Assembly: GCF_036227205.1 (NCBI RefSeq)
Contig: NZ_CP109442.1
Location: 3,720,001 to 3,784,000, forward strand
Direction: 5' to 3'
Length of the DNA: 64,000 nucleotides
From: Amycolatopsis sp. NBC_01480
GTDB lineage: Bacteria > Actinomycetota > Actinomycetes > Mycobacteriales > Pseudonocardiaceae
The translations under genes and the position numbers were made by a program. A model generated the notes under the pieces. It searched no databases and had not been told where the DNA came from. It saw nothing but the letters and a program-made list of their open reading frames with translations. Shown in pieces: positions 9,456-29,025 of the stretch (positions are counted from its first letter, which is position 1; each line of letters opens with the position of its first letter).

Positions 9456-9500
9456 GTCAACCCGAGGTTGACGACGTCGGATCGTCAACCTACAGTTGAC
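9456..9500 (+). promoter_or_regulatory. Tandem inverted-repeat operator overlapping a leaderless promoter
   Basis: Two 17-bp inverted repeats of form GTCAAC-N5-GTTGAC lie at 9456-9472 and 9484-9500. They enclose a good promoter: TTGACG (9468-9473), a 17-nt spacer and TACAGT (9491-9496). The start codon follows seven nt after the -10, so the mRNA is predicted to be leaderless. The same arrangement occurs before the gene at 28274, which suggests autoregulation by the HTH of these proteins. Confidence 0.8.
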
Positions 9501-9503
9501 GGC

Positions 9504-10235
9504 ATGACCTACCCAGTGAAGCTCGACGACCTGATCTCCGCCATCAAGTCCAACCAGGACCACGACGCGCTCGGCCAGCTGTCCGACGCGGTTTACCTCG
9601 GCGAGCACCTCGGTGAGCTCGCCGATCACCTGATCGGCCACTTCGTCGACCAGGCCCGCCGGTCCGGCGCCTCCTGGACCGAAATCGGCGCCAGCATGGG
9701 CGTTTCCAAACAGGCGGTGCAGAAACGGTTCGTGCCGAAGATCGACCCCGGCGGCGATTCCGGGGGAGTGATCCAACGGCTCTACGGCCGCTACACCGTC
9801 CGCGCCCGGCACGTGGTCGTCGAAGCGAAGGACGCGGCGATCAAGGCCAAGAGCCCCGGCATCGACACCACGCACCTGGTGCTCGGCCTGCTTTCCGAGC
9901 CGGCCGCGCTGGCGGCGGGGGTGATCGTGTTCCAGGGCGTCTCGCTCGACGCCGTTCGCGAGGCGGCCGAGGCCCGGCTGCCCGAGCCGGTGGACGACGT
10001 GCCGGACCCGATGCCGTTCACCGCGGCGGCGAAGAAGACGCTGGAGCTGACCCTGCGGGAAGGCCTTCGCCTCGGCCACAACTACATCGGCACCGAGCAC
10101 CTTTTGCTGGCCCTGCTGGAACAAGGCGAGGGCGCGGGGTACGAGGTGCTCACCGGGCTGGGCATCACGAAGGAGCCGGCGGAGACGAAGATCAAGGAGG
10201 CGCTGGCGGAGATCCTGGCCGCCCGGGCGCAGTAA
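9504..10235 (+). CDS. HTH - Clp_N fusion protein (ClpA/C N-domain-like)
   Basis: The 243-aa protein joins an N-terminal helix-turn-helix (residues about 50-78, ASWTEIGASMGVSKQAVQKRF) to double Clp N-terminal repeats (about 90-240), recognisable from HVVVEAKDAAIKAKSPGIDTTHLVLGLL and KKTLELTLREGLRLGHNYIGTEHLLLALL. There is no AAA+ ATPase domain. Clp N-domains recognise substrates or adaptors, so this may be a DNA-binding protein whose activity responds to proteolytic stress. It is paralogous to the two-gene locus at 28274-29025, where HTH and Clp_N are separate. ATG 9504 is chosen because it lies seven nt after the -10 box and the upstream in-frame ATG would sit inside the promoter. Confidence 0.85.
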   Translation: MTYPVKLDDLISAIKSNQDHDALGQLSDAVYLGEHLGELADHLIGHFVDQARRSGASWTEIGASMGVSKQAVQKRFVPKIDPGGDSGGVIQRLYGRYTVRARHVVVEAKDAAIKAKSPGIDTTHLVLGLLSEPAALAAGVIVFQGVSLDAVREAAEARLPEPVDDVPDPMPFTAAAKKTLELTLREGLRLGHNYIGTEHLLLALLEQGEGAGYEVLTGLGITKEPAETKIKEALAEILAARAQ

Positions 10236-10237
10236 AC

Positions 10238-10283
10238 CTCGTGAGTGGCTATGCCGGTTAGAACCGGCATAGCCACTCACGAG
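10238..10283. repeat. 46-bp palindromic element, family A copy 1 (perfect)
   Basis: Perfect palindrome with 22-bp arms and a 2-nt centre: outer CTCGTGAGTG/CACTCACGAG, inner GCTATGCC/GGCATAGC, core GGTT-AG-AACC. It lies between two convergent genes, so it probably acts as a bidirectional terminator. Other copies are at 28174, 56553 and 63867. Confidence 0.9.
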
Positions 10284-10289
10284 TCTTGG

Positions 10290-11729
10290 TCAGGACGGGG
10301 ATTCGGTCCGGTCCTCGGTGGCCCAGGCCGTGTGGAACGAGCCTTCGCGGTCCACCCGGCGGTAGGTGTGCGCGCCGAAGTAGTCGCGCTGCCCCTGGAC
10401 GAGCGCGGCCGGCAGGCGGTCCGCACGCAGGCCGTCGTAGTAGGCCAGCGCGGTGGAGAAGCCCGGCGTCGGGATGCCGAGCTGGACGGCGGTGGAGATG
10501 ACCGAGCGCCAGGAGTCCTGGGCGTCCTCGACGGCCTTGCGGAAGCCGCCGGAGGTGAGCAGGGTCGGCAGGCCCGGCTCGTCGGCGTAGGCCGCGGTGA
10601 TGTCGTTGAGGAACTTGGCCCGGATGATGCAGCCGCCGCGCCAGATGGAGGCGACGCGGCCGAGGTCGATGTCCCAGCCGTACTCGCTCGCGCCGGCCTG
10701 GATCTGGTTGAAGCCCTGGGCGTACGCGACCACCTTGGACGCGTACAGCGCCTGCTCGACGTCGTCCGCGAAGGTCTCCAGCGCGGCACCGGTGAGCGGC
10801 GCGCGCGAAGGCCCGCCGAGACCGTGCGCCGCCGAGCGCAGCGGCTTCGAGCCCGAGAGCGAGCGGGCGAACACGGCTTCGGCGATCCCGCTGATCGGCA
10901 CGCCGAGGTCGAGTCCGATCTGGACGGTCCAGCGGCCGGTGCCCTTCTGCTCGGCGGCGTCCTCGACGATGTCGACGAACGGCTTGCCGGTGGCCGCGTC
11001 CACGTGCTTGAGCACGTCGGCGGTGATCTCGATCAGATACGAGTCGAGGCGGCCGGTGTTCCAGGTCTGGAACACGTCGGCGATCTCGGCCGGCGCGTAG
11101 CCCGCGGCGCCGCGCAGCAGGTCGAACGACTCGGCGATCAGCTGCATGTCGGCGTACTCGATGCCGTTGTGCACCATCTTCACGAAGTGGCCCGCGCCGT
11201 CCGCGCCGATGTGCGTGCAGCAGGGCTCGCCGTCGACCTTCGCCGAGATGTCCTCGAACAGCGGGCCGAGCGACTCGTACGACTCCTTGGAGCCGCCGGG
11301 CATGATGCTCGGGCCGTTGAGCGCGCCCTCCTCGCCGCCGGAGACGCCGGTGCCGACGAAGTGCAGCCCGCGCTCACGAAGCGCCTTCTCACGACGGCGG
11401 GTGTCCGCGAAGTGCGCGTTGCCGGCGTCGACGATCACGTCGCCCCGCTCCAGCAGCGGCGCGAACTCCTCGATGACGGCGTCGGTCGGCCCGCCCGCCT
11501 TGACCATGATCACGATCTGCCGCGGCCGTTCGAGCGCGTCGACGAACTCCTGCGCGGAGTACGCCGGGATGAAGTCGCCCTCGTCGCCGAACTGCTCGAC
11601 GAGGGAGCGGGTGCGCTCCTCGGAGCGGTTGTGCAGGGCGACGGTGTGCCCGTGCCGGGCGAGGTTCCTGGCCAGGTTGCGGCCCATGACCGCCAGGCCG
11701 GTGACCCCGATGCTCGCCTTCTTGCTCAT
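10290..11729 (-). CDS. gnd: 6-phosphogluconate dehydrogenase, decarboxylating
   Basis: Converts 6-phosphogluconate to ribulose 5-phosphate and CO2 with NADP+ in the oxidative pentose phosphate pathway. At 479 aa it matches the long (gram-negative/NADP) class. The Rossmann motif GVTGLAVMGRNLARNLARHG lies at residues 8-27, with VHNR-like ALHNRSEERTR specifying NADP. The catalytic region FVGTGVSGGEEGALNGPSIM and KMVHNGIEYADMQ supplies the Lys and Glu, and the C-terminal substrate loop HTYRRVDREGSFHTAW is intact. It is transcribed toward the HTH-Clp_N gene across palindrome A1, so it terminates there. Confidence 0.97.
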   Translation of the reverse strand: MSKKASIGVTGLAVMGRNLARNLARHGHTVALHNRSEERTRSLVEQFGDEGDFIPAYSAQEFVDALERPRQIVIMVKAGGPTDAVIEEFAPLLERGDVIVDAGNAHFADTRRREKALRERGLHFVGTGVSGGEEGALNGPSIMPGGSKESYESLGPLFEDISAKVDGEPCCTHIGADGAGHFVKMVHNGIEYADMQLIAESFDLLRGAAGYAPAEIADVFQTWNTGRLDSYLIEITADVLKHVDAATGKPFVDIVEDAAEQKGTGRWTVQIGLDLGVPISGIAEAVFARSLSGSKPLRSAAHGLGGPSRAPLTGAALETFADDVEQALYASKVVAYAQGFNQIQAGASEYGWDIDLGRVASIWRGGCIIRAKFLNDITAAYADEPGLPTLLTSGGFRKAVEDAQDSWRSVISTAVQLGIPTPGFSTALAYYDGLRADRLPAALVQGQRDYFGAHTYRRVDREGSFHTAWATEDRTESPS

Positions 11730-11835
11730 CCGAACCCTTTCCGAAGTCTCTGCCGGAGTCCGACACTAGTCCGCGCGCCCGCCCGTGACGTCCGAGAGAA
11801 CACTCACGGGGCAGGCGGGAATGAACCGGGCCGCT

Positions 11836-12753
11836 TCAGGAGAAGCAGCGGATCGGCGCCCCGTTGTAGGCGATCATGTCGGTGATGGCCGCGACCAGGT
11901 CGATCGGCGCGCCCCACTCGGCGCCGTCCAGCTCGGCGTACGCGCGGTGGAGGTTGCCGGCCAGCCGCTCCTGCTCGGACATCTCCGCGAACGCGCCGAG
12001 GTCCGTCTCCTTCGCCAGCTCCAGCGGCGACCGCCCGGCCGCCTTGCCCCGCGATGCCGTGTCCTGCACGAAAGCCAGGTACGCGTCGACGGTGTCGATC
12101 ACCTCCGGCCCGCACGCCGGCCCGTGCCCGGGCAGGATCACGGCCGGCTCCAGCTCGCGGATCACGTCCAGCGCGGCGCGCCAGCCCGCGACCGAGCCCA
12201 TCAGCGCGAACGGGCTGCCGCCGTTGAAGATCAGGTCGCCGGTGTAGAGCACGCGCTGCTCGGGCAGCCAGGCGAGCACGTCGTTGGTGGTGTGCGCGGC
12301 GTGGCCGGGGTGGATCAGGTCAACGCGGGTCTCGCCCGCGTACACGGTCAGCCGGTCTTCGAAGACGACATCCGGCACGCGCAGCTCGAGGTGGCCCCAG
12401 TCGTTGCCGGGGAAGATGCCTTCGTACAGCTGGATGCCCTCGGCGAGCATCACCTCGCGCGTCTTGCGCTGGCCGACGATGGTGGCGCCCTCGACGAGGT
12501 AGTTGCCGTTGGTGTGGTCGCCGTGGTGGTGGGTGTTGACCAGGGTCGTGACCGGGCCGGTCGCGGCCGCGACGGTCTCCAGCATCGCGCGCGTGCGCCG
12601 TTCGGTGGAGCAGGTGTCGATGAGGACGGTGTGGCCGCCCGCGTCGAGGAAGCCGCAGTTGTTGATGAACCACGAGCCGTCGGGCTGCACGTACCCGAAG
12701 GCGCCATCGGCCAGGCGTTCGACGCCGGCCGCGGCGGGGGAGCGATCGATCAT
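11836..12753 (-). CDS. MBL-fold metallo-hydrolase
   Basis: The 305-aa protein has the metallo-beta-lactamase fold. The metal motif THHHGDHTNGNYLVEGA lies at residues about 94-110, with further ligands in HPGHAAHTTNDVLAWLP, YTGDLIFNGGSP and ILPGHGPACG. It resembles the cyclase/quinoprotein-relay group of MBL hydrolases rather than a true beta-lactamase, since there is no signal peptide. Substrate unknown. It lies about 105 bp upstream of gnd on the same strand and divergently from the XRE regulator at 13000, with about 246 bp between them containing a tandem AAGTGACAAC repeat (12821-12840). Confidence 0.85.
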   Translation of the reverse strand: MIDRSPAAAGVERLADGAFGYVQPDGSWFINNCGFLDAGGHTVLIDTCSTERRTRAMLETVAAATGPVTTLVNTHHHGDHTNGNYLVEGATIVGQRKTREVMLAEGIQLYEGIFPGNDWGHLELRVPDVVFEDRLTVYAGETRVDLIHPGHAAHTTNDVLAWLPEQRVLYTGDLIFNGGSPFALMGSVAGWRAALDVIRELEPAVILPGHGPACGPEVIDTVDAYLAFVQDTASRGKAAGRSPLELAKETDLGAFAEMSEQERLAGNLHRAYAELDGAEWGAPIDLVAAITDMIAYNGAPIRCFS

Positions 12754-12999
12754 GCGGTCGACTATGCCCTATTCGGAGCAACGGCCGGGCCCGGAATGCC
12801 GCTTATCGGCTGGTCCGGCCGAGTGACAACAAGTGACAACCGGGGTGACTGGCGTTTCGCGTCATTTCCTGGAACGCTGCGCAGTGTCATCATCGAACCC
12901 CGTTGGGTCAAGCACTAGCCTGGGTGGTTCGAACGTTCGCGCGCCGGTGGGGCTTCAGGGCAGCTGCCGGCGATTTAGTGGTCCGGGAGAGCAAGGCTG

Positions 13000-13854
13000 A
13001 TGGCGAGCACCGTCACCTCGCGCCGGAAGCAGCTCGGCAACGAGCTCCGGCATGCCCGCAACGCCGCGCGGATGACACAACAGCAAGTCGCCGAGGTTCT
13101 CGGCTGCACCCAGGGCAAGGTCAACAAGATCGAGTCCGGTGCCGTCGGAGTCAAGCTCGGGGATGTGCGCTCCATGCTGAACGCGTTCGGGATCAACGGC
13201 GAAGAGGCCGACACCCTGATGAACCTGGCGCGGGCCGCCGCCGGGCAGCGCGGCCACTGGTCGGGCTACCGGTCCGTGGTGCCGCACTGGTTCCGCACCT
13301 TCACGGACCTGGAGCCCGCGGCCGCGGAGATCCTCACCTGGCACGGCGAGCGCGTCCCGGGGCCGTTGCAGTCCGAGCACTACATGCTCAAGCAGTTCAC
13401 CGAGGCGGGCGCCACGGACGTCACGGCGCTGGTGCGCAACCGGCTCGACCGCAAGGCCGTTTTCGAGCAGCAGCAACCGCCGTACTACCGGTTCATCATC
13501 AGCGAGGGCGCCCTGCGGCGAGCCCCCGGCGGGTTCGCCCCGGCGGTGATGCTGGACCAGGTGGAGCACCTGCTCGCCCTCGACCGGCACCCGCGCGTGT
13601 ACGTGCACGTGCTCCCCTTCGGCGCCCGGCTCGCCGCCGTGCCCAACGACTTCACGATCATGCGCTTCCCGGACCGCACCAGGGATTTCGTCTACATCGA
13701 ACACTCGGCCGGCGGCCTGTACCTCGACGACGTCAAGGACTTCAACATCTTCGTCGACTCCTGGGACCGGTTGCGCGGGGCCGCGCTGGAACGACAGGAG
13801 ACTCGGCAGTTTCTCAAGGAGCTGGCTGAGGGGTATAGGGCACAGATGCAGTGA
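13000..13854 (+). CDS. XRE-family regulator with DUF5753 domain
   Basis: The 284-aa protein has an N-terminal Cro/C1 helix-turn-helix (residues 10-65, with MTQQQVAEVLGCTQGKVNKIE) and a DUF5753 domain (about 90-275, with WHGERVPGPLQSEHYM and YVHVLPFG). This is the actinomycete BldB/AbaA-orfA-type regulator class that usually pairs with a small DUF397 protein; a DUF397 gene is found about 2 kb downstream at 15809 rather than adjacent. ATG 13000 follows GGGAGAG. Such pairs influence development and secondary metabolism in streptomycetes; the role here is inferred. Confidence 0.9.
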   Translation: MASTVTSRRKQLGNELRHARNAARMTQQQVAEVLGCTQGKVNKIESGAVGVKLGDVRSMLNAFGINGEEADTLMNLARAAAGQRGHWSGYRSVVPHWFRTFTDLEPAAAEILTWHGERVPGPLQSEHYMLKQFTEAGATDVTALVRNRLDRKAVFEQQQPPYYRFIISEGALRRAPGGFAPAVMLDQVEHLLALDRHPRVYVHVLPFGARLAAVPNDFTIMRFPDRTRDFVYIEHSAGGLYLDDVKDFNIFVDSWDRLRGAALERQETRQFLKELAEGYRAQMQ

Positions 13855-14110
13855 CTCGCTGTGCCCGGTCTTGGTGCGGCTGCTTTCGGGGGCGATTTTC
13901 CTTGGGGTACAAAGCATTCCACGCACAGGTGGTCCGACTGCGGGCCGAAGCCGGCCGCCGGTGAAGGTGAAGAGGAAGCGCATTCACGGCAAGGTAGTGG
14001 GTGGCGGAGTGACGTCCGGCACGGTTTTGCGCGCCCCGGATGTCACCCATACGGGGGGCGGTCGGCAGACTGGACCCCACACGCGCCCCGGGTGAAAGGG
14101 AGAACAGCTG

Positions 14111-14968
14111 ATGACGCAGGTACCGGACCCCGCCGATCCACAGGCCCCGGAAGGCGTTGACCTCGAACGGCCCAACGCGGCGCGGATCTACGACTGGTTC
14201 CTCGGCGGCACGGCGAACTGGGCGATCGACCGCGAGTTCGGCGAGCGGGCCGTCAAGACGTTCCCGACGATCAAGAGCATCGCGCAGCTCGGCCGGCAGT
14301 TCCTCGGGCGCGGCGTGGAGTACATGGCGCGCCAGGGCATCGACCAGTTCCTCGACCTCGGCTCGGGCGTGCCGACGGTCGGCAACGTGCACGAGATCGC
14401 CGTGTCGGTGAACCCCGACGCGCGCTGCGTGTACGTCGACAACGAGCCCGTCGCGGTCGCGCACTCGCAGATCCTGCTGGAGCGTGAGGGCGTCGCCGAC
14501 CGGCACGCGGTGCTGCACGGCGACCTGCGTCAGCCTGGCGACATCTGGCCGCGGGCGCTCGACACCGGCGTGCTCGACCCGAAACGGCCGATCGGGCTGA
14601 TCATGTGCGGCGTGCTGTACTTCGTCGGGCCGGACGAGGACGCGCCCGGCATCGTGCGCAAGTACCTGTCACTGCTGCCGTCCGGGTCGTACTTCCTGGC
14701 TTCGCACCTGACGAACGACGGCGTCAAGGCGCCCGACGGGGAGAGCCGCGACGAGATCCAGGAGCAGTACAAGCAGTCCAGCACGCCGTTCTACCACCGC
14801 ACCCGCGAGGAGTTCGCGGAGTTCTTCGAAGGGCTGGAGCTGGTCAAGCCCGGCATCACCTGGATTCCGGAGTGGCACCCGGACGAAGCCGCGGAGAGGC
14901 TGGTCAACCGGATCGCTGAGGACCCGTCGTTCAGCGGCGGCCTCGGCGCGATGGGCCGCAAGCCCTAG
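14111..14968 (+). CDS. SAM-dependent methyltransferase (DUF574/SAM_MT family)
   Basis: The 285-aa protein belongs to the actinobacterial S-adenosylmethionine methyltransferase family formerly called DUF574. It shows the hallmark N-terminus PNAARIYDWFLGGTANWAIDRE, the SAM-binding motif FLDLGSGVPTVGNVHEIA (residues about 80-97), the acidic VYVDNEPVAVAH, and IMCGVLYFVGPDEDAP. The acceptor substrate of this family is not established. AAAGGGAG precedes the ATG. These genes commonly lie close to XRE/DUF397 pairs in actinomycetes, as here. Confidence 0.9.
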   Translation: MTQVPDPADPQAPEGVDLERPNAARIYDWFLGGTANWAIDREFGERAVKTFPTIKSIAQLGRQFLGRGVEYMARQGIDQFLDLGSGVPTVGNVHEIAVSVNPDARCVYVDNEPVAVAHSQILLEREGVADRHAVLHGDLRQPGDIWPRALDTGVLDPKRPIGLIMCGVLYFVGPDEDAPGIVRKYLSLLPSGSYFLASHLTNDGVKAPDGESRDEIQEQYKQSSTPFYHRTREEFAEFFEGLELVKPGITWIPEWHPDEAAERLVNRIAEDPSFSGGLGAMGRKP

Positions 14969-14972
14969 ACAG

Positions 14973-15007
14973 CAACGCGCCCCGGGTCACTGGCCCGGGG
15001 CGCGTTG
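14973..15007. terminator. Strong bidirectional terminator hairpin
   Basis: A perfect 14-bp GC-rich stem (CAACGCGCCCCGGG with its complement) closes a 7-nt loop between the convergent genes ending at 14968 and 15030. Confidence 0.85.
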
Positions 15008-15029
15008 TGTGGTGGGAGCGGTGGATCAG

Positions 15030-15284
15030 TCAGACCCTGGACGAGCCAAGGCCGTGCAGCAGCGGGGTCAGGTCGACCCTCGCTTCGAGCGGTCGCGTCG
15101 CGCGGACCAGGTCCGGCTGGCGCGGCGTGGGGAGGTCGACGTCGGTGTCCCATCGCATGGGCGTGCGCAGCGGCGCCTGGATCAGGCTGCGACCGAAGCG
15201 GCTGCGCAGTTCGTGACCGATCCCACGCCGGACGCGAGTGTGTTCGTCCTCACGGCGAAAGAGCGTGGTGAGCCGGACGGCCAT
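15030..15284 (-). CDS. Small basic hypothetical protein
   Basis: No family recognised. This 84-aa Arg-rich protein (MAVRLTTLFRREDEHTRVRRGI) starts 4 bp after the stop of the small gene at 15289 and reads the same way, so the two look like one operon. It contains no cysteines or membrane segments. Support is position, direction and the tight spacing; it sits inside a cluster with an XRE regulator, methyltransferase and DUF397 protein. Confidence 0.5.
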   Translation of the reverse strand: MAVRLTTLFRREDEHTRVRRGIGHELRSRFGRSLIQAPLRTPMRWDTDVDLPTPRQPDLVRATRPLEARVDLTPLLHGLGSSRV

Positions 15285-15288
15285 GGGA

Positions 15289-15558
15289 TCACACCCCCAG
15301 TTCGGGTAGCAGCGGGTACCGGGGCTGGTCAGCTCCGGTCAGACCGAGGCAGCGCTCGCACGGCATACCCGTGCCCGGCACCACCCACTCCACGTCGGCG
15401 AGGGGAAGCTTCTCCCCGCACCGGGCGAGCACCCGGTCGCCGGACCTGCCGGCGTCCACCTCGAAGACATGCGCGACGCGGCGGGCCTCGCCCGTGGTCC
15501 CGGGCGCGAGCCGGCCGGTCACCAGCAGTTTCGCTGTCATGTCGTCTTGGATGAGCAC
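15289..15558 (-). CDS. Small hypothetical protein with a CxxC pair
   Basis: An 89-aa protein, GTG 15558 chosen because GAGAGGG lies just upstream; an internal ATG at 15540 is the alternative. It reads VLIQDDMTAKLLVTGRL and carries GMPCERCLGL near the C-terminus, possibly half of a zinc site, with a further Cys at RCGEK. The adjacent 84-aa gene follows after 4 bp. Divergent from the DUF397 gene at 15809 across about 250 bp of relatively AT-rich sequence. Function unknown. Confidence 0.55.
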   Translation of the reverse strand: MLIQDDMTAKLLVTGRLAPGTTGEARRVAHVFEVDAGRSGDRVLARCGEKLPLADVEWVVPGTGMPCERCLGLTGADQPRYPLLPELGV

Positions 15559-15808
15559 GCTTTCCCTCTCCCGAGGTCCGCGAGTGGCCGGGGCGGCTGA
15601 GCGGGTTGGGCCGAATGCAGCAAGCCATTCACCCACCATCAGCGCCCCGATCGGTACGATTAATCCTACTCCTGGAATAATCTTCATGTCGAGATCGGGC
15701 CGAGTTGATCACCCGCTTGGCCCTGCGGTTTGCTCCGTAGTGACAGAAAGAAGCCGGGGACGTGCGCCGCGACCGCACGCCGTGGCCGAAGACTCGGAGG
15801 TACGACCC

Positions 15809-16069
15809 ATGGCGGATTATCCGTCGTCCCCGGATTACGACCCGAACGCCGTCAAATCGCTGTTCGAGGACGCCGCCTGGGGGAAGTCGTTCGCCAGCGA
15901 GCCCAACGGCGGCAACTGCGTGGAGGTCAACCTGGGCCGGGAAGGCCTGGTGGGCGTCCGTGACACCAAGCTCGCGCAGAGCCCGGTGCTGGTCTTCGAC
16001 GCCGGCGAGTGGGCGGCGTTCCTGGTGGCGGTCAAGGCGGGGCAGTTCGACCTGCCGCCCAGCACCTGA
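15809..16069 (+). CDS. DUF397 domain protein
   Basis: An 86-aa DUF397 protein: the core FEDAAWGKSFASEPNGGNCVEV, VGVRDTK and the terminal SPVLVFDAGEWAAFLVAVKAGQF are all typical. The start ATG at 15809 lies nine nt after CGGAGG. DUF397 proteins act with XRE-DUF5753 regulators, apparently as antagonists or partners; the likely partner is the gene at 13000. The pair is split here by a methyltransferase and two small minus-strand genes. Confidence 0.9.
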   Translation: MADYPSSPDYDPNAVKSLFEDAAWGKSFASEPNGGNCVEVNLGREGLVGVRDTKLAQSPVLVFDAGEWAAFLVAVKAGQFDLPPST

Positions 16070-16153
16070 ATTCGGCCACGCCGTGGGAAGTTCACCAAAT
16101 GTCACCCGATGGGGTGAGTCTGAGTGACCCACCGTGGCGAGTCTGGAGCTGAC

Positions 16154-16206
16154 GCCGTTAAGGCCTCCTTACCCGCGTCGGACGCGGGTAAGGAGGCCTT
16201 AACGGC
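16154..16206. repeat. 53-bp palindromic element, family B copy 1 (perfect)
   Basis: Two perfect 26-bp arms around a single G, outer GCCGTTAAGGCCTCCTTACC then CGCGTC. It sits between the convergent genes ending at 16069 and 16225. Family members at 44372 and 51693 also lie in convergent junctions, consistent with bidirectional termination. Confidence 0.9.
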
Positions 16207-22295: not shown

Positions 22296-22296
22296 C

Positions 22297-22875
22297 TCAC
22301 ACCTGCGCGCCGCGCAGCAGCATCATCAGCGGCTCGGCGGCCGGGACGTCGACGCCGGTCGAGAACCGGCGTAGCTGCAAGCCGGCGATCAGCGCGACTA
22401 CGTGGCCGGCCAGCCGCTCCGGCTCTGCGACGCCGAGCGCGCGCAGGATCGCGATGGCCAGGTCGTCGTACGCGGCGAAGCAGCGCGAGGACGCTTCGCG
22501 CAGCGCGGGATCACGCGCGGCCTGGAGGTACAACTCGTGCGGCGCCAGCTCGTCGGTGCCGAAGGGCAGCTGCTTGATGACCTGCTCGACGACGGCGGCG
22601 CCCTGCTCGAGGTTCAGGCCGTCGGCGCGGTGCGCGTCGACGATCGCCGTGAGCTTCGCCGTCTCGTCCTCGGCGAACAGCAGCATGGCCTCGCGCAGTA
22701 GCTCGGTCTGGCTGGGGAAGTGGTAGGTCAGCGTGCCGAGCGAGACGCCCGCCGCGGCCACGATCCGCCGGTTGGTCAGGCCGCCGACGCCGACCTCGCC
22801 GACCACTTTCAGCGTCGCGCGCAGGATCGAGTCGCGGGTGCTCACCACACCGTCGCGGGCCGGCGCTCCTGCCAT
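22297..22875 (-). CDS. TetR-family transcriptional regulator
   Basis: The 192-aa repressor has an N-terminal HTH (STRDSILRATLKVVGEVGVGG then LTNRRIVAAAGVSLGTLTYHF) and an all-helical ligand domain. ATG 22875 is preceded by GGAAGAGG and lies inside the amidase 3' end, overlapping it by 34 bp. The operon promoter carries an 18-bp perfect palindrome (24242-24259), a good candidate for its operator, so the gene is probably autoregulated and responds to a substrate of the amidase or MpaB protein. Confidence 0.9.
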   Translation of the reverse strand: MAGAPARDGVVSTRDSILRATLKVVGEVGVGGLTNRRIVAAAGVSLGTLTYHFPSQTELLREAMLLFAEDETAKLTAIVDAHRADGLNLEQGAAVVEQVIKQLPFGTDELAPHELYLQAARDPALREASSRCFAAYDDLAIAILRALGVAEPERLAGHVVALIAGLQLRRFSTGVDVPAAEPLMMLLRGAQV

Positions 22876-24224
22876 CGTTCGACCTCTTCCAGTTGCGCGG
22901 CAACGGAGATCAGCCGCTCTTCCGCGTGCGACGGGCCGAGCAGCTGCGCGCCGAGCGGCAGCCCGCCGGCGGTCCGCCCGGCCGGGACGTTGACGCCCGG
23001 CCAGCCCAGCACGTTCCACGGCCAAGCGTAGGGGCAAGCGGCGATCATCGTCTGGTCGGTGCGCCAGCCGGTGAGGCCGTCGAACGTGCCGACGGCGGGC
23101 GGCGGGGTCGCGGTGGTCGGGGTGAGCAGCACGTCGACGCGGCCGAAGACCGAGCCGATCCGGCGTTGCAGCGCGGGTTCGAAGGCGCGCGCGAGCTTCA
23201 GCGCCGGCCCGGCGAGCAGGCGGCCCTGTTGCGCGTTGCTGCGGGTGCGCGGGTCGAGCGCGGCCACGGCGGGGACGCGACGGGTCCAGTCGCGCACCCC
23301 GGTGAGCGAGCGCGGCAGGAAGGTCAGGCCGACCAGTCCGTAGTCCGGCTCCAGCTCGACGATCTCGTGGCCGAGCGCGGCCAGCTTCTCGGCGGTGTCC
23401 CGCACGGCGGCCTCGACCACCGGGTCGAGCCGGGTTTTCGTTGCCGTGAAAGGAATCCTGGTGGACAGGCCGATGCGCAGCCGTCCCGGTTCCCGCTTCG
23501 CGGCGGTCTGGAACGCGGTGCCGGTGCCCGCGGTGACGTCGAGCAGCAGCGCGGCGTCGCCGACCGTGCGGGCCAGCGGGCCGAGCACCGTCAGGCCGTG
23601 GAACAGCTCGCCGCCGGTGGGGATGCGGCCGCGCTGGGGCTTGATGCCGACCAGGCCGGTCCACGCGGCGGGGATGCGCACCGAGCCCGCGCCGTCGGAG
23701 CCGAGCGCGCCCGCCACGATGCCCGCGGCGACGGCGGCGGCCGACCCGCCGGAGGAGCCGCCGGGCGTGTGGCCGGGGTCCCACGGGTTGCGTGTCGCGC
23801 CGAACGCGGCACCCTCGGTGAACGGCCATTGGCCCAGCTCAGGCGTGTTCGTCTTGCCGACGATCACCGCGCCGGCCTGCTTGAGCCGGGCGACCGCGGG
23901 CGCGTCGGCGATGGCCACGGGGAAGTCCCCGGGGCAGCCGAACGCGGTGGGCTGGCCGGCCAGGTCCACGTCGTCCTTGATCGCGACGGGCACGCCGAGC
24001 AGCGGGGCGCGCTCGCCGTTCGCGAGGCGGCGGTCGGCCTCGGCTGCTTCGGCGAGCGCGTCCTCGTCACGGATCCGGCGGAACGCGTTGAGCACCGGCT
24101 GGCTCGCGTTCGCCTGGTCCAGCGCGGTGGCGGTGAGCTGGGCGGACGTGACCGAACCGGCGGCGAGCGCGGTGGACTGCGCGGCCAGGCCGGCGAAGGC
24201 GGTCGTCTCGGGGCTGACGGTCAT
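22842..24224 (-). CDS. Amidase signature family hydrolase
   Basis: The 460-aa enzyme has the full amidase signature: catalytic Lys in GVPVAIKDDVDLAGQPTAFG, the Ser-rich loop TPGGSSGGSAAAVAAG with cis-Ser, and the nucleophile region ALGSDGAGSVRIPAAWTGLVG, plus the structural KPQRGRIPTGG. It hydrolyses an amide bond; GatA is excluded by the absence of GatB/C context. ATG 24224 follows GGGAG. It heads the operon with TetR and the MpaB-type gene. Substrate not predictable. Confidence 0.92.
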   Translation of the reverse strand: MTVSPETTAFAGLAAQSTALAAGSVTSAQLTATALDQANASQPVLNAFRRIRDEDALAEAAEADRRLANGERAPLLGVPVAIKDDVDLAGQPTAFGCPGDFPVAIADAPAVARLKQAGAVIVGKTNTPELGQWPFTEGAAFGATRNPWDPGHTPGGSSGGSAAAVAAGIVAGALGSDGAGSVRIPAAWTGLVGIKPQRGRIPTGGELFHGLTVLGPLARTVGDAALLLDVTAGTGTAFQTAAKREPGRLRIGLSTRIPFTATKTRLDPVVEAAVRDTAEKLAALGHEIVELEPDYGLVGLTFLPRSLTGVRDWTRRVPAVAALDPRTRSNAQQGRLLAGPALKLARAFEPALQRRIGSVFGRVDVLLTPTTATPPPAVGTFDGLTGWRTDQTMIAACPYAWPWNVLGWPGVNVPAGRTAGGLPLGAQLLGPSHAEERLISVAAQLEEVERWQERRPATVW

Positions 24225-24241
24225 CAGCGGCTCCCGTCTCT

Positions 24242-24259
24242 CGTTCGTTCGAACGAACG
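24242..24259. promoter_or_regulatory. 18-bp perfect palindrome, likely TetR operator
   Basis: CGTTCGTTCGAACGAACG is perfectly self-complementary and lies 17 bp before the amidase start. A TAACGT -10-like hexamer abuts it on the transcribed strand. The TetR encoded two genes downstream is the obvious candidate ligand. Confidence 0.75.
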
Positions 24260-24286
24260 TTACCACGCCGACCTGAGAGAACCGGC

Positions 24287-25399
24287 TCAGAAGAACAGGT
24301 CGACCAGCTCCTGGGGCGGGTTGTCGCCGAAGAGCTGCACCAGGAACTCCCTGCCGTCGGTGGGCGTGGCATTGCGGCGGAACATGGCCTGCTCGAACTC
24401 GCGGAGCGCGGCGTCGACGTCGCCGGGGTGCGCGGCGATGGCCTGGGCGAGTTCGGCGCCGTCGAGCATCGCGTTGTTGGCGCCCTCGCCGTCCGGCGGC
24501 GCGAGGTGGGCGGCGTCGCCGATGAGGGTCACGCCGGGACGCGGGTCCCATCGGTGCCCGGCCGGCAGCCCGAAGAGGGGCCGCAGGATCGGCGGGGTGT
24601 CGGCGTCGGTGATCAGCGAGGTGAGCACCGGGTCCCAGCCGTCGAACTCGGCCGCGATCCGCGCGGTGGCCGCGGCCGGGTCGGTGAAGTCGATGCCGGC
24701 GAACCACTCCTGGGACCGGGTGAGGATCACGTAGGTGTGCAGGGTCGCGTCGCGCTCCCGGTGCGCGTTGATCGAACCGGCCTTCCCGGTCGTGCTCAGG
24801 GTTCCGCCGCCGACGGCCTTCGCGGCAGCTGGGTGGCGCGCATCGGCGTCGTACAGCCAGGTTTCGACAAACGAGTCGCCGGTGTACTCGGGCACCGCGT
24901 CGGACACCAGCGGCCGGACGCGGGACCAGGCTCCGTCGGCGCCGACCAGCAGGCCGGTGCTGATGGTGGTGCCGTCGGTGAAAGCCACCTCGTGACGGCC
25001 TTCGCCCAGGCTGCGGACGTCGCTGACCTTGCGTCCCCAGTGGACGGTGCCCGGCGGGAGCGAGTCGAGCAGCAGCTGGCGCAGTTCGCCCCGCTGCACC
25101 TCGGGACGGCCGCCGGTGCCGTCGTCGGCCTTCTCGAACAGCACCTTGCCGTGCTGGTCGACGATCCGCATCGCCTGGCGGCCCTCCAGCACCAGCTCGC
25201 GGAACTCGGCCATGAGGCCGGCGGCCTCGACGGCGAGCTGGCCGTTGTAGTCGTGGATGTCGAGCATCCCGCCCTGGGCGCGTGCGGCAACCGAGGGCTC
25301 GGCCTCGTAAACGGCGGCCGGGATGCCTTGGCGGTGCAGGACCCGCGCCAGGGTGAGGCCGGCGAGGCCCGCGCCGATGATGGTGACCGGAGTGGACAT
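24287..25399 (-). CDS. FAD-dependent monooxygenase, TetX-like
   Basis: The 370-aa flavoprotein monooxygenase has GAGLAGLTLARVLHRQGI (FAD), GGMLDIHDYNGQLAVEAAGL, the FAD/NADPH motif LVGADGAWSRVRPL and the distal GDAAHLAPPDGEGANNAMLD. These, and FEKADDGTGGRPEVQRGELR, follow the TetX (tetracycline-destructase) pattern closely. Whether it inactivates tetracyclines or oxidises another phenolic compound cannot be told. It ends 62 bp before the amidase start, with the palindromic operator between, so it may be co-regulated. ATG 25399 follows GAAGAG. Confidence 0.88.
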   Translation of the reverse strand: MSTPVTIIGAGLAGLTLARVLHRQGIPAAVYEAEPSVAARAQGGMLDIHDYNGQLAVEAAGLMAEFRELVLEGRQAMRIVDQHGKVLFEKADDGTGGRPEVQRGELRQLLLDSLPPGTVHWGRKVSDVRSLGEGRHEVAFTDGTTISTGLLVGADGAWSRVRPLVSDAVPEYTGDSFVETWLYDADARHPAAAKAVGGGTLSTTGKAGSINAHRERDATLHTYVILTRSQEWFAGIDFTDPAAATARIAAEFDGWDPVLTSLITDADTPPILRPLFGLPAGHRWDPRPGVTLIGDAAHLAPPDGEGANNAMLDGAELAQAIAAHPGDVDAALREFEQAMFRRNATPTDGREFLVQLFGDNPPQELVDLFF

Positions 25400-25578
25400 G
25401 TTCGCTCTTCTCGTGCTCGGTGATGGTGACCTGCTCAGGCTGCCGGCGGGCGCTGTCGGGCCGCGCACACGCGGCTGGCACGGGCCTGGCAGCCCGGCGC
25501 GGGCGGTGTCAGCCATCCGGCGTTTTGCCGGGCAACGGTTACGGTGAACCGAGAACCGCCTCAGCCCACGGAGGATCG

Positions 25579-26607
25579 ATGACGTTCGACTTCGACCGGT
25601 TTCCCGCTCTCGAAGTTTTCCCGCGGGCCGGGCTGGGCGGGTGGCCGACGCCGCTGGTCCCGGCGCCGCGGCTCGGCGAAGCACTGGGGCTGCCGAACCT
25701 GCTGCTCAAGCGCGACGACGTGCACCCGCTCGGCCTCGGCGGCAACAAGCTGCGCAAGCTCGACTTCCACCTCGGCGCGGCGCTGGCTTCCGGCGCCGAC
25801 ACCGTGATCACGTTCGGCGCGCTGCAGACCAATCACGGCCGTCAGACGGCCGCCGCGTGCGCGCGCCTCGGCCTGCGCTGCGAGCTGGTGCTCACCGCGA
25901 AAGTCCCGCGCTCGGGCGAGGCGTACGAGCGCTCCGGCAACATCCCGCTGGACCTGCTGTTCGGCGCGCGGGTGCACGTCTGCGCCGACGACGAGGAGAC
26001 CGGGCGGACGTACGACGAGCTGGTGGCCGAGGCCGCGGCGGAGGGCCGGAAGGTGGCGACCATCCCCGTCGGCGGCTCGGATGCCTTGGGCGCCTTGGGT
26101 TATCTGGACGCGACGCGCGAGCTGGCTCACCAGCTTTCGGCCGCGGGCATCAGCCGGGCCCGCGTCGTCGGCCCGCACGCGAGCGGCGGCACGGCGGCGG
26201 GCATCGCGCTCGGGACGGCGCTGCTCGGCTCGCTGGGCGCGGACTTCGCGTGCGTCAGCCATCCGATCGGCGAGGCCACGGAGAACCTGACGCACCTGGT
26301 CACCTCGACCGCGCAGCTCCTCGGCATCGACACCCCGGTGCTGGACCACGTGTGGATGAGCGACTCCACCCTCGGCGAGGGCTACGGCATCCCGGCGCCC
26401 GAGACCTGGGGCGCGCTACGGCTGTTCGGCCGCACCGAGGGCGTGGTCCTGGACCCGGTCTACACCGGCAAAGTCGCGGCCGCGCTGGTGGAATGGTCGG
26501 CGGCCGGCCGGTTCGACCCGGACGAGACGGTGGTCTTCGTCCACACCGGAGGCCTGCCCGGGCTGTACGGCTACGCCCCGGAATTCGCGGCCGCCATGGA
26601 GGAGTGA
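25579..26607 (+). CDS. PLP-dependent D-cysteine desulfhydrase / ACC deaminase family enzyme
   Basis: The 342-aa protein is of fold type II, with the PLP lysine in GLGGNKLRKLDFHLG (residues about 50-64), FGALQTNHGRQTAAACARLG, the phosphate-binding GPHASGGTAAG loop (about 195) and a late VFVHTGGLPGLYGY. The pattern matches D-cysteine desulfhydrase (pyruvate, H2S and NH3 from D-Cys) and ACC deaminase, which share a fold and are hard to separate by eye. Start ATG 25579 follows GAGG. It converges on the DUF998 gene with only 2 bp between stops. Confidence 0.88.
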   Translation: MTFDFDRFPALEVFPRAGLGGWPTPLVPAPRLGEALGLPNLLLKRDDVHPLGLGGNKLRKLDFHLGAALASGADTVITFGALQTNHGRQTAAACARLGLRCELVLTAKVPRSGEAYERSGNIPLDLLFGARVHVCADDEETGRTYDELVAEAAAEGRKVATIPVGGSDALGALGYLDATRELAHQLSAAGISRARVVGPHASGGTAAGIALGTALLGSLGADFACVSHPIGEATENLTHLVTSTAQLLGIDTPVLDHVWMSDSTLGEGYGIPAPETWGALRLFGRTEGVVLDPVYTGKVAAALVEWSAAGRFDPDETVVFVHTGGLPGLYGYAPEFAAAMEE

Positions 26608-26609
26608 AG

Positions 26610-27302
26610 TCAGCTTCGCTCGGGCTCGAGCTGCGAAACTGCCGGAACCAGGGCCTTGGCCGCGTCGGTCCGGACCGCGATGCGGACCAGGCCCAGCAGC
26701 AGGAGGACGTCGGCGATCAGCATCAGGCGCTGCGTCACCCCGATCGGCACGGCGTCGGCGAGCACGTGGAACGGCGCGATGCCCGCCTCGTCCAGCCGGA
26801 CGAACAGGAAGCTCAGCCCGAACAGCCCCAGCACCACCACGCCGAGCCGCAGCCAGCGCACCACGATCGCGCGGTACGGGCTGTCGCGCAGCGGGTCGAG
26901 CAGGGTGATGGCCGCGCCGGGCAAGCTGGTGAACGCCACCAGGCACGAGTACATGTGGATGTCGCCGCTCAGCGGGTTCGGGTTCGGCGGGTAGCTGGCC
27001 GGGAAGACCGCCGCCGTCGCCAGCCCCAGTGACCAGAGCGTGAGCAGCACCCGGGTGGTCCGCGGCAGCGGCACGCCCGCCGCCACCAGCGTGCCGAGCA
27101 CCGCGAGCGAGCCGATGGCCAGCGAGAGCACGCTCGCGCCGAGCATGCCCTGGCCGCGGTCGGTGATGATGTAGCTCGACAACGTGTCGTACACCGGGTT
27201 CCGCGAGCTGATGATGTGCAGCACGGTGATGGTGAACATGCCCCACGCGATCGCCGCGAGCGCGGCCAGCCGCCAGATCCGGACCCCCCGTGAATTCCCC
27301 AT
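26610..27302 (-). CDS. DUF998 family membrane protein
   Basis: The 230-aa protein has about six transmembrane helices. Typical DUF998 features include the N-terminal helix, an outward SSRNPVYDTLSSYIITDRG segment, FPASYPPNPNPLSGDIHMYSCLVAF and SLPGAAITLLDPLRD. ATG 27302 is chosen; a GTG two codons upstream is possible. Function of the family is unknown. It is followed by the convergent desulfhydrase gene and preceded, on the same strand, by the PP2C gene (52 bp away). Confidence 0.8.
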   Translation of the reverse strand: MGNSRGVRIWRLAALAAIAWGMFTITVLHIISSRNPVYDTLSSYIITDRGQGMLGASVLSLAIGSLAVLGTLVAAGVPLPRTTRVLLTLWSLGLATAAVFPASYPPNPNPLSGDIHMYSCLVAFTSLPGAAITLLDPLRDSPYRAIVVRWLRLGVVVLGLFGLSFLFVRLDEAGIAPFHVLADAVPIGVTQRLMLIADVLLLLGLVRIAVRTDAAKALVPAVSQLEPERS

Positions 27303-27354
27303 GATCACAGGGTTCCGGTTCCGGGCCCTCCCGTGATCCGGGAAAACCCTGAAT

Positions 27355-28134
27355 TCACCCCTGGTCGCGACAGGGGTTGAACTCCGCGACGACCAGTGCT
27401 TGGTCGTCGTGCCGCTTCGCGCGCGGCCAGCGTTCGCCCTGCGGGTCCTGCTTCTCCGCGGTGCGGACGGCGTCCAGCACCGCGTCCGGCCCGCTCGCCC
27501 GGGCCAGCCGCAGCACGTCCGGCCAGCCGAAGAGGCGGTACTCGTCGACGCCGATGGAGACGCCGTCGGTGGCCAGCAGCACCGCGTCGACCTCCGCGCG
27601 CGGCCACCGGCGTCGCACGGCCTTCTCCGCCGCGACCGGGTCGGCCTCCGCGACCCAGAAGCCGCCCTCGGCGTTGCGCCGCCGTCGGACGTCAGCGCCG
27701 GTCTGCAGCAGGCCGCCGTCGCGCAGGGAAAGCAGCCGGTCGTCGGAGACCACATCGGTGCCGAACTGTCCGAACGCGACAATCGGACTGTCCGCCAGGA
27801 CAAGGGCTTCCACCTGCTCGGCGTCCCAGCGCACGATCGAGACGGTGCTCGACGGCGAGTTGCGCGGAGTCAGCTGCTGCGCCTCCGCGACGCCGGCGAT
27901 GGCCGATGCCAGCGCGTCACCCAGGTCGGCAGTGGGCTGCGCGCTCAGCTCGGTGGCCAGCTCCCGCACCAGCAGCCCCGCGTACCAGCCGCCGGGCGGC
28001 AGGTCCGGGCTCGGCGACGTCGCGCCGTCCAGCACCAGCACGGCGTTGTCCAGCACGACGACGTGGTCTTCGGTCGGCCGGGGCAGGCCGTCCGCACCGA
28101 CCCCGGCCCGCTCGGCGATCGCGATCTCGGGCAT
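27355..28134 (-). CDS. PP2C-type serine/threonine phosphatase-like protein
   Basis: The 259-aa protein resembles a PP2C/SpoIIE-like phosphatase domain: TEDHVVVLDNAVLVLDGATSP near the N-terminus supplies an Asp equivalent, SSTVSIVRWDAEQVEALVLADSPIV the middle strand pair, and VDAVLLATDGVSIGVDEY the DG motif, with KRHDDQALVVAEF near the C-terminus the terminal Asp. The first canonical R-x-x-N-E-D metal motif is only partly kept, so activity is uncertain. It is divergent from the HTH gene at 28274, with palindrome A2 between. Confidence 0.75.
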   Translation of the reverse strand: MPEIAIAERAGVGADGLPRPTEDHVVVLDNAVLVLDGATSPSPDLPPGGWYAGLLVRELATELSAQPTADLGDALASAIAGVAEAQQLTPRNSPSSTVSIVRWDAEQVEALVLADSPIVAFGQFGTDVVSDDRLLSLRDGGLLQTGADVRRRRNAEGGFWVAEADPVAAEKAVRRRWPRAEVDAVLLATDGVSIGVDEYRLFGWPDVLRLARASGPDAVLDAVRTAEKQDPQGERWPRAKRHDDQALVVAEFNPCRDQG

Positions 28135-28173
28135 CAGCCGACTCTAACCCGGGACCCACGGCCGTCCTCAACC

Positions 28174-28219
28174 CTCGTGAGTGCCTATGCCGGTTCTAAC
28201 CGTCGTGAACACTCACGAG
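28174..28219. repeat. 46-bp palindromic element, family A copy 2 (hybrid arms)
   Basis: The outer decamers CTCGTGAGTG/CACTCACGAG and the GGTT-CT-AACC core are intact, but the inner arms do not match: left CCTATGCC resembles copy 1 and right GTCGTGAA resembles copy 4. It lies between divergent promoters rather than in a convergent junction. Confidence 0.85.
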
Positions 28220-28226
28220 TCCTCCC

Positions 28227-28269
28227 GTCAACCAAGGTTGACACGGCCGGCTTGTCAACCTAGATTGAC
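28227..28269 (+). promoter_or_regulatory. Second copy of the HTH/Clp_N operator-promoter
   Basis: Inverted repeats GTCAACCAAGGTTGAC (28227-28242) and GTCAACCTAGATTGAC (28254-28269) overlap the promoter TTGACA (28238-28243), 17-nt spacer, TAGATT (28261-28266). The start codon is seven nt after the -10. Layout is the same as at 9456-9500, to within one base. Confidence 0.8.
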
Positions 28270-28273
28270 AGGC

Positions 28274-28483
28274 ATGACGGAAGCAACAGACCTGGCCGCA
28301 CGGGCCGGCGACCGCGATCCCCGCGTGGGGCTTCGCGCGGTCGCGGCGCTCCGTCGGCTGGTGGAGCAACTCGAGGCCGTCCAGGTGCGCAGCGCGCGGA
28401 TGCACGGCTGGTCCTGGCAGGAGATCGCCGCCGAGCTGGGGGTCAGCCGGCAGGCAGTGCACAAGAAGCACGGGAGGAACTGA
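28274..28483 (+). CDS. Small HTH DNA-binding protein (stand-alone HTH of the Clp_N pair)
   Basis: A 69-aa protein of which the last third is a helix-turn-helix, GWSWQEIAAELGVSRQAVHKKH, closely resembling the HTH of the fused protein at 9504 (ASWTEIGASMGVSKQAVQKRF). The N-terminal half is helical (RVGLRAVAALRRLVEQLEAVQ). The start is set by the leaderless promoter. It overlaps the next gene by one base (TGATG), so the two products are likely made in equal amounts and probably work together. Confidence 0.85.
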   Translation: MTEATDLAARAGDRDPRVGLRAVAALRRLVEQLEAVQVRSARMHGWSWQEIAAELGVSRQAVHKKHGRN

Positions 28484-29025
28484 TGTTCGAACGGTTCACC
28501 ATCGACGCGCGGATGGCCGTGGTCGAGGCGCAGATCGTGGCCCGGGAGCTGGGTTCGCGGGAGGTCTCGCCGCAGGAGGTGTTCGCCGGCCTCGCCAGAG
28601 CGGAAAACGGCGACGCGCGGCGGCTGCTGGAACAGCTGGGCGTTTCGCAGGCCGAGTTGCTCGCCGAGCTGGAGCGAATCCGGCGCCGCGGCGGGATCAG
28701 CGACGCCGACGTCGAGGCGCTCACGGAGTTCGGCATCGACGTCGACCAGATCGTCGAGCGCATCGAGCAGACGCACGGCGAGGGCGCGCTGGCGGGCGGC
28801 GGGAAACGCGGCCGCCGCGGCCACATCCCGTTCACCGGCGAGGCCAAGAAAACGCTGGAGCTGAGCCTGCGCGAAGCCGTCAAGCTCGGCGACAAGCACC
28901 TGGGCCAGGAGCACATGCTGCTCGCGCTGGTGCAGCAGAAGGGCGCGGTCGCCGACCTGCTGGCCGCGCGCGGCGTCGACTACCTGAGCGTGCGCCGGGC
29001 AGTCGGTCAGCGCGCGGCGGGCTGA
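28483..29025 (+). CDS. Clp N-domain protein without ATPase
   Basis: The 180-aa protein is a Clp_N double-repeat domain: MFERFTIDARMAVVEAQIVARELGS then VSPQEVFAGLARAE for the first repeat, and FTGEAKKTLELSLREAVKLG then DKHLGQEHMLLALV for the second. It lacks Walker motifs, so it is not a Clp ATPase. It is translationally coupled to the HTH gene; together they correspond to the single fused protein at 9504. A role in sensing unfolded or protease-bound protein is inferred from the domain only. Its 3' end overlaps the convergent YczE gene by 19 bp. Confidence 0.85.
   Translation: MFERFTIDARMAVVEAQIVARELGSREVSPQEVFAGLARAENGDARRLLEQLGVSQAELLAELERIRRRGGISDADVEALTEFGIDVDQIVERIEQTHGEGALAGGGKRGRRGHIPFTGEAKKTLELSLREAVKLGDKHLGQEHMLLALVQQKGAVADLLAARGVDYLSVRRAVGQRAAG

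What the first reader, a model, noticed from the sequence alone, without database searches (positions are those of the whole stretch)
9456..29025. Two HTH/Clp_N loci, one fused and one split, driven by the same double-operator leaderless promoter
At 9456-10235 a single gene encodes HTH + Clp_N. At 28227-29025 two overlapping genes encode the HTH and the Clp_N separately. Both are preceded by two GTCAAC/GTTGAC inverted repeats set 27-28 bp apart, which embed identical-geometry -35 and -10 boxes (17-nt spacer) and place the start codon seven nt after the -10. The Clp N-domain normally recruits substrates to a ClpC/ClpA ATPase, so these could be transcription factors whose activity or stability is read through the Clp system. 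It looks like a small undescribed regulon with gene fission or fusion.
Basis: partly seen in the sequence, partly recalled or inferred. Interest (0 to 1): 0.78.

Follow-up and report, generated by a model that had tools for sequence, protein, structure and literature searches.

The report
Split and fused ClpC2-type autorepressors
Two gene sets in this soil bacterium each appear to switch themselves off through the same paired DNA site; one is a known drug-sensing decoy protein (ClpC2), the other a widespread two-gene version that seems undescribed and points to a different DNA-reading domain than the published one.

Summary
Locus 1 (gene 9504-10235) is a clpC2 orthologue; its tandem GTCAAC-n5-GTTGAC operators, embedded -35/-10 and leaderless start were published for ClpC2 in 2023, so that half is known. 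Locus 2 (28274-28483 + 28483-29025) is a two-gene version for which I found no description in my searches. It is not a local fission: the short HTH is in 139 of 200 genomes of the order, mostly followed by a separately started Clp_N gene. Among loci with a clear double site, fused ones have a 5-nt loop (39 of 40) and split ones 4 nt (138 of 138). The tandem operator follows the HTH, not Clp_N: it also precedes HTH genes coupled to a beta-lactamase-family hydrolase or an ABC transporter. Recognition-helix residues track operator bases: A/G versus S/T after the conserved Gln predicts base 5 in 179 of 180 loci. This indicates that the HTH reads DNA, whereas the published model uses the Clp_N domain; the ClpC2 crystal fragment ends just before the recognition helix. 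Most likely: HTH autorepressor plus Clp_N ligand sensor/decoy, fused or in trans. Trans-sensing is inferred.

The parts
9456..9472 (+). Operator 1A of locus 1, GTCAACCCGAGGTTGAC (5-nt loop); its right arm supplies the -35
   Evidence: same site type shown bound by mycobacterial ClpC2 in PMC10030653
9468..9473 (+). -35-like TTGACG
   Evidence: read from sequence
9484..9500 (+). Operator 1B of locus 1, GTCAACCTACAGTTGAC (5-nt loop)
9491..9496 (+). -10-like TACAGT, 17 nt after the -35, 7 nt before ATG (leaderless start inferred)
9504..10235 (+). clpC2 orthologue: N-terminal HTH fused to Clp_N (243 aa)
   Evidence: (8ADA 1.1e-25)
9708..9731 (+). Predicted recognition helix of locus 1 (residues 69-76), beyond the end of the solved fragment 8ADA
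9759..10232 (+). Clp_N part of locus 1 (residues 86-243)
28227..28242 (+). Operator 2A of locus 2, GTCAACCAAGGTTGAC (4-nt loop)
28238..28243 (+). -35-like TTGACA
28254..28269 (+). Operator 2B of locus 2, GTCAACCTAGATTGAC (4-nt loop, one arm mismatch)
28261..28266 (+). -10-like TAGATT, 17 nt after the -35, 7 nt before ATG
28274..28483 (+). Stand-alone HTH gene (69 aa), split counterpart of the ClpC2 N-domain
28448..28471 (+). Predicted recognition helix of the split HTH (residues 59-66)
28472..28477 (+). Shine-Dalgarno-like GGGAGG for the Clp_N gene, inside the end of the HTH gene
28483..29025 (+). Separate Clp_N gene (180 aa) with an insert between the two Clp_N repeats

Best explanation
Both loci are autoregulated sensor/decoy units. 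A small HTH (the N-domain in fused ClpC2, the first gene in the split form) dimerises and reads GTCAAC half-sites through its recognition helix. It occupies two tandem palindromes that overlap -35 and -10 and so shuts off its own leaderless promoter. The Clp_N part, fused or made from the next gene, has the ClpC1-type ligand pocket. When it captures a ClpC1-directed peptide antibiotic or an unfolded client, repression is lifted and the Clp_N protein accumulates and shields ClpC1. In the split form the Clp_N protein would act on the HTH in trans. The 4- versus 5-nt loop and the H/Q difference in the helix would keep the two paralogous circuits apart. Shown by others for mycobacterial fused ClpC2: operator binding, autorepression, cyclomarin binding and derepression. 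Shown here by sequence: HTH-operator linkage, covariation and spread of the split form. Inferred: DNA reading by the HTH rather than Clp_N, trans-sensing in the split form, insulation.
For: Tandem palindromes found without a motif (loops of 4 or 5 nt) upstream of 196 of 217 HTH records (score 24 or more of 36; shuffled control 1 of 190); among records fetched by HTH homology alone, 85 of 106. Of those with a clear double site, loop 5 in 39 of 40 fused and loop 4 in 138 of 138 split (146 split in all). In 180 loci with operator and Clp_N: residue after Gln A/G with base A5 163 of 164, S/T with G5 (in two or more of four half-sites) 16 of 16; residue before Gln R/K with G1 171 of 173, A/P with A1 7 of 7; helix residue H with loop 4 141 of 141, Q with loop 5 39 of 39. 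Corrected mutual information, best HTH versus best Clp_N column, 71 representatives: base 5 0.83 vs 0.51, base 6 0.64 vs 0.33, base 1 0.93 vs 0.80, base 2 0.85 vs 0.70, loop 0.99 vs 0.88. The operator is present with other partners: L048-L050 Pfam Beta-lactamase, L333 Pfam ABC_membrane, L012 C-term without Pfam family. 8ADA ends at the HTH turn. Published: R57A in the N-domain derepresses 4.6-fold, the Clp_N double Arg mutant 2.0-fold. Pocket residues in 141 loop-4 loci: F2 113, F80-like 102, E89-like 97. Clp_N gene has a Shine-Dalgarno-like motif in 117 of 137, background 8.8%.
Against: The published R185A/R189A Clp_N mutant binds DNA less well, so Clp_N may contribute contacts. Covariation is partly shared ancestry: on the tree base 5 and its residue change 5 times each, base 1 and the loop only once; independent pairs on supported branches are 3 for base 5 (2 same way, 0 opposite, 1 no difference) and 2 for base 6, too few for a sign test. 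With 43 representatives (70% identity) base 2 ties at 0.79 and base 1 and the loop are nearly tied (0.90 vs 0.84, 0.98 vs 0.95); for base 1 the top HTH column is not the residue before Gln. No direct evidence that the split HTH and Clp_N proteins touch, or that any split unit answers a drug. 21 of 106 HTH-fetched records lack a clear double site, 8 of them split. The recognition helix of locus 1 lies in a stretch of middling model confidence (mean pLDDT 76 for residues 71-80).
Confidence: 0.65

Rival explanations
1. DNA is read by the Clp_N domain, as the 2023 paper proposed; the N-terminal part only dimerises.
For: R185A/R189A lowers DNA binding and the matching M. smegmatis mutant derepresses 2-fold; both Arg are near-invariant in the fused family, 38 of 39 each.
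Against: In 141 loop-4 loci the second Arg is R in only 45 (A 25, D 22, E 12) although the operator persists; operators occur with HTHs that have no Clp_N partner; bases 5 and 6 track helix residues more than any Clp_N column; R57A in the N-domain derepresses more, and the paper uses the Clp_N-only variant and R57A in gel shifts to argue that dimers are needed for high affinity.
Confidence: 0.1
2. In the split operon the HTH is a plain autorepressor and Clp_N is only its cargo (a decoy or adaptor for ClpC); the inducing signal enters another way, for instance through turnover of the HTH.
For: In locus 2 the HTH ORF ends three residues after the recognition helix, leaving little obvious contact surface for Clp_N; other partners (hydrolase, transporter) are not Clp_N domains.
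Against: Frequent pairing with Clp_N (146 of 218 by a narrow profile, 76 of 80 named loci) and the working fused paralogue suggest a joint function.
Confidence: 0.3
3. Locus 2 makes a fused protein by ribosomal frameshifting, so it is not truly split.
For: Stop and start overlap by one base.
Against: Clp_N lies in all three frames relative to the HTH across loci (83/31/23) and has a Shine-Dalgarno-like motif in 117 of 137.
Confidence: 0.03

Closest known systems
ClpC2 (Rv2667 / M. smegmatis ClpC2), Taylor et al. 2023, PMC10030653
   Same: N-domain (HTH by my reading) plus Clp_N; tandem CGTCAAC-n5-GTTGACG operators over -35/-10; leaderless start; locus 1 is an orthologue.
   Different: Locus 2 is two genes with a 4-nt operator loop, a Clp_N insert and Lys at the second Arg position; I place DNA reading in the HTH, the paper in Clp_N.
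RelI antitoxin (Rv2664), Han et al. 2026, PMC13284704
   Same: HTH region related to the ClpC2 N-domain; the split-HTH profile hits RelI in PDB 9SDC at 5.2e-8.
   Different: RelI pairs with the RelS toxin; that paper found no inverted repeats upstream and no evidence of DNA binding. The window loci have clear operators and Clp_N partners.
ClpC3 (small Clp protein of mycobacteria; Hoi et al. 2023, not held)
   Same: Small Clp protein said to bind cyclomarin and ecumicin and to share the ClpC1 ligand site, according to a review (PMC10864484, passages).
   Different: I could not read the primary paper, so whether ClpC3 sits in a split HTH operon is unknown.
ClpC1 N-terminal domain
   Same: The split Clp_N matches it best in the PDB (2e-21), including MFERFT and GHIPFT segments.
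   Different: No ATPase domains; insert of about 35 residues between repeats.

Membership tests
ClpC2 (locus 1) | N-domain homologous to 8ADA | tested here: met
   phmmer 1.1e-25, residues 2-67
ClpC2 (locus 1) | C-terminal Clp_N domain | tested here: met
   Pfam 1.3e-19; ClpC2 chain 9P2P 5.5e-39
ClpC2 (locus 1) | GTCAAC-n5-GTTGAC operator at the start codon, tandem | tested here: met
   9456-9472, 9484-9500
ClpC2 (locus 1) | Pocket residues F2/F80/E89 of ClpC1 kept | tested here: inconclusive
   locus 1 has Y, F, E at these columns; residue roles partly recalled
ClpC2 (locus 1) | Binds its operator and represses itself; binds cyclomarin | not testable with these tools
   published for mycobacterial ClpC2 only
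ClpC2 (locus 2) | Single polypeptide with HTH and Clp_N | tested here: not met
   two genes; Shine-Dalgarno-like motif and varied frames across loci
ClpC2 (locus 2) | Operator loop of 5 nt | tested here: not met
   4 nt, as in 138 of 138 split loci with a clear double site
ClpC2 (locus 2) | HTH homologous to the ClpC2 N-domain | tested here: met
   hhalign 97% probability, E 2.9e-11; 8ADA 2.4e-4
ClpC2 (locus 2) | Clp_N with ClpC1-type pocket residues | tested here: met
   F2, F5, F80-like, E89-like all present in locus 2; residue roles partly recalled, binding untested
RelS-RelI toxin-antitoxin | HTH gene beside a RelS toxin gene | tested here: inconclusive
   downstream neighbour of the HTH gene is Clp_N; the upstream side was not searched for RelS

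The most novel reading that the evidence does not exclude
ClpC2 is one member of a modular actinobacterial platform. One small leaderless HTH autorepressor family, with a readable residue-to-base code and tandem operators, is paired fused or in trans with different effectors: a mimic of a drug target (Clp_N), a beta-lactamase-family hydrolase, or an ABC transporter. Each would form a self-contained stress or antibiotic response unit, kept apart by operator spacing and sequence.
Probability: 0.42. Interest if true: 0.76.

Novelty: new variant of a known kind. Interest (0 to 1): 0.62.

Why it matters
ClpC2 blunts ClpC1-directed antitubercular leads, so knowing which domain reads DNA decides how induction works. 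The published structures leave out the recognition helix, and the split family separates the two functions into two proteins, which makes the question directly testable. The family also offers a natural set of operator-specificity variants and a two-gene candidate sensor found in Actinomycetota, including Streptomyces and Amycolatopsis, which make many peptide antibiotics (the last point is general knowledge).

Tried and rejected

Errors of mine: the split HTH was first queried in the wrong frame (window:28276-28480) (protein 2); I use none of those HTH results except that fetched loci L051-L079, which later scripts read in all six frames. One search read those loci without regard to strand and is not used. 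One search failed on a bad pattern. One search printed its counts and then stopped with an error at the tree drawing, so no drawn tree was seen. The Clp_N profile used for classing rests on four sequences, so 'other' includes at least three loci with a Pfam Clp_N neighbour (L021, L023, L213). Operator loops other than 4 or 5 were not tried, so L012 (loop 6) is mis-set there. Start codons were chosen as those nearest the HTH stop. L319 counts as lacking an operator only because its match began at residue 2. L223 (fused, loop 4) may be a sequencing frameshift or a second fusion; not resolved. One search translated L048 from upstream of the hydrolase start; one search repeats it from the start. 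Names of the partner genes were first given by eye and then checked with Pfam; the gene beside Clp_N in L003, which I first called MerR-like, has no Pfam family.

Full report
What is there. Both loci are as described. Locus 1 is a single gene at 9504-10235; locus 2 is an HTH gene at 28274-28483 and a Clp_N gene at 28483-29025. Each promoter has two palindromes; the right arm of the first gives TTGAC, the second covers the -10 after a 17-nt spacer, and ATG follows 7 nt later. The single-site motif occurs 3 times in the window against 0.01 expected and at 6 places in the 10.1-Mb genome: two at locus 1, one at locus 2 (whose second site has a mismatch), two at a further locus (L012) and one alone.

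Locus 1 is known. Its N-part matches the solved ClpC2 N-domain 8ADA (1.1e-25, residues 2-67), and its C-part matches a ClpC2 chain (5.5e-39). Taylor et al. 2023 (PMC10030653; outline, passages and sections 7 and 11 read) showed for mycobacterial ClpC2 autorepression, operator CGTCAAC-n5-GTTGACG one or two bases before the ORF, tandem copies overlapping the putative -35 and -10, a position that suggests leaderless transcripts, and derepression by cyclomarin, which ClpC2 also soaks up.

Locus 2 belongs to a second, two-gene lineage. In the correct frame the 69-aa HTH finds relatives (E 1e-3 or better) in 139 of 200 genomes of the order, 51 of 60 genera. The exact double site is in 110 of the 200, with no hit of the backwards control in any row. 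In 252 fetched loci I found 218 distinct HTH records: 146 with a separate Clp_N gene downstream, 40 fused, 31 other, 1 cut; 52 regions plus 30 loci of these had been fetched by the operator itself. In named genomes the 80 best loci (589 were confirmed) are Amycolatopsis, Streptomyces and one Embleya; 76 of 80 have Clp_N next and 79 of 80 a 4-nt-loop double operator. A phylum-wide scan for the exact double site hit 32 of 296 genomes; of 30 loci fetched, 29 held an HTH within the 3-kb locus: 12 fused, 15 split, 2 other (recounted). The own genome holds a third HTH/Clp_N unit, also split, at C1:8825467-8826413, with a different operator pair, GTCAGCATATGTTGAC and GTCAGCATATGCTGAC, in the same geometry.

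The Clp_N gene appears separately translated. A Shine-Dalgarno-like motif precedes it in 117 of 137 split loci (background 8.8%), and its frame relative to the HTH varies, 83/31/23. So it looks neither like a frameshift product nor like a broken gene.

Which domain reads the DNA. The 2023 paper proposes the Clp_N domain (R185, R189) and gives the N-domain dimerisation; the words HTH and helix-turn-helix do not occur in its main text. Five lines point to the N-domain instead. (1) The operator travels with the HTH. A motif-free search finds tandem palindromes at 196 of 217 HTH records against 1 of 190 shuffled controls, and at 85 of 106 records fetched by HTH homology alone. (2) It is there when Clp_N is not: perfect double sites precede HTH genes that overlap a beta-lactamase-family hydrolase gene (L048-L050; Pfam 1.5e-36, 8.1e-32, 7.1e-35), or are fused to a C-terminal part without a Pfam family (L012); a double site with one mismatch in 24 arm bases precedes an HTH gene followed by an ABC transporter gene (L333; Pfam ABC_membrane 2.7e-42). 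(3) Operator spacing splits by HTH class: of loci with a clear double site, loop 5 in 39 of 40 fused, loop 4 in 138 of 138 split. (4) Helix residues and bases go together in 180 loci that have operator and Clp_N: after Gln, A/G with A5 in 163 of 164 and S/T with G5 in 16 of 16; before Gln, R/K with G1 in 171 of 173 and A/P with A1 in 7 of 7. With 71 representatives under 80% identity, corrected mutual information for the best HTH and best Clp_N column is 0.83 and 0.51 (base 5), 0.64 and 0.33 (base 6), 0.93 and 0.80 (base 1), 0.85 and 0.70 (base 2), 0.99 and 0.88 (loop). (5) The solved N-fragment stops at residue 72, which aligns to locus-1 residue 67, and the other construct starts at 94; AlphaFold2 of locus 1 (mean pLDDT 91, but 76 over residues 71-80) puts the recognition helix at 69-76. 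The helix thus falls between the two published structures. The paper's own mutants fit: R57A in the N-domain derepresses 4.6-fold, the Clp_N double mutant 2.0-fold.

Limits. Part of the covariation is common descent. On a tree of 87 representatives base 5 and its residue each change 5 times, base 1 and the loop once each; supported independent pairs are 3 for base 5 (2 agree, 0 oppose, 1 neutral) and 2 for base 6, too few to test. With 43 representatives base 2 ties (0.79 and 0.79), and base 1 and the loop are nearly tied; only bases 5 and 6 keep a clear margin (0.69 vs 0.46, 0.50 vs 0.31). For base 1 the top HTH column is not the residue before Gln. The published loss of binding in R185A/R189A means Clp_N may help. 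In the 141 loop-4 loci the second of these positions is R in 45 and otherwise often A, D or E.

How the split pair may work. The loop-4 Clp_N proteins mostly keep the pocket residues of ClpC1 (F2 113, F80-like 102, E89-like 97 of 141; the roles of these residues are partly recalled) and have an insert between the repeats with a motif in 111 of 141, against 0 of 39 fused. I take Clp_N as the ligand sensor and sponge acting on the HTH in trans; that contact is untested. A plain autorepressor with Clp_N as cargo is the main rival.

Prior art on the HTH. Han et al. 2026 (PMC13284704; abstract, outline and passages) noticed that the RelI antitoxin resembles the ClpC2 HTH region and that relatives are fused to DUF3887 or DUF2812. 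They report no inverted repeats upstream of relSI and no evidence of DNA binding. My split-HTH profile hits RelI at 5.2e-8. I found no description of the split HTH/Clp_N operon in the listings of searches of an open-licence library, nor in the passages read; the ClpC3 paper is not held, so this is not proof of absence.

Verdict. Half known, half a new and widespread variant that turns an assumed mechanism into a testable question. The confidence of the best explanation was set down by 0.01 on rechecking, because the margin for bases 1, 2 and the loop narrows with fewer representatives.

Noticed in passing
L012 (own genome C1:5144858-5147875), 874-1534 minus strand: Third GTCAAC double operator (6-nt loops) before a gene with a ClpC2-like HTH (hhalign E 1.8e-7) fused to a C-terminal part without a Pfam family; a full-length relative was seen in no other of the 150 order genomes searched.
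   Followed up: partly
L017 (own genome C1:8823987-8827166), 1434-2427: Second split HTH/Clp_N unit of this genome, with GTCAGC-type operators and Gln-Thr in the recognition helix.
   Followed up: yes
L003 (own genome C1:9939997-9943290), 992-2391: Gene with Clp_N repeats (323 aa, Pfam 3.2e-38) divergent from a short gene without a Pfam family, with a GTCAATATCAGTGTATTGAC palindrome between them.
   Followed up: partly
L011 (own genome C1:5077187-5080203), 1501-1517: Single GTCAACAAGTTGTTGAC site about 30 bases upstream of a gene on the minus strand that looks TetR-like by eye.
   Followed up: no
   Followed up: partly
   Followed up: partly
L225, L235, L237, L333: HTH genes followed by ABC transporter genes (Pfam in L225, L237, L333; L235 by eye); double operator clear in L333 and L237, weak in L225, not found in L235.
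   Followed up: partly
L221, L232, L239, and L238, L240-L244, L246: HTH lineages with AGCAAC half-sites (first three) or ATCAAC half-sites (the rest); the latter have Ala or Pro in place of the Arg/Lys before Gln.
   Followed up: partly
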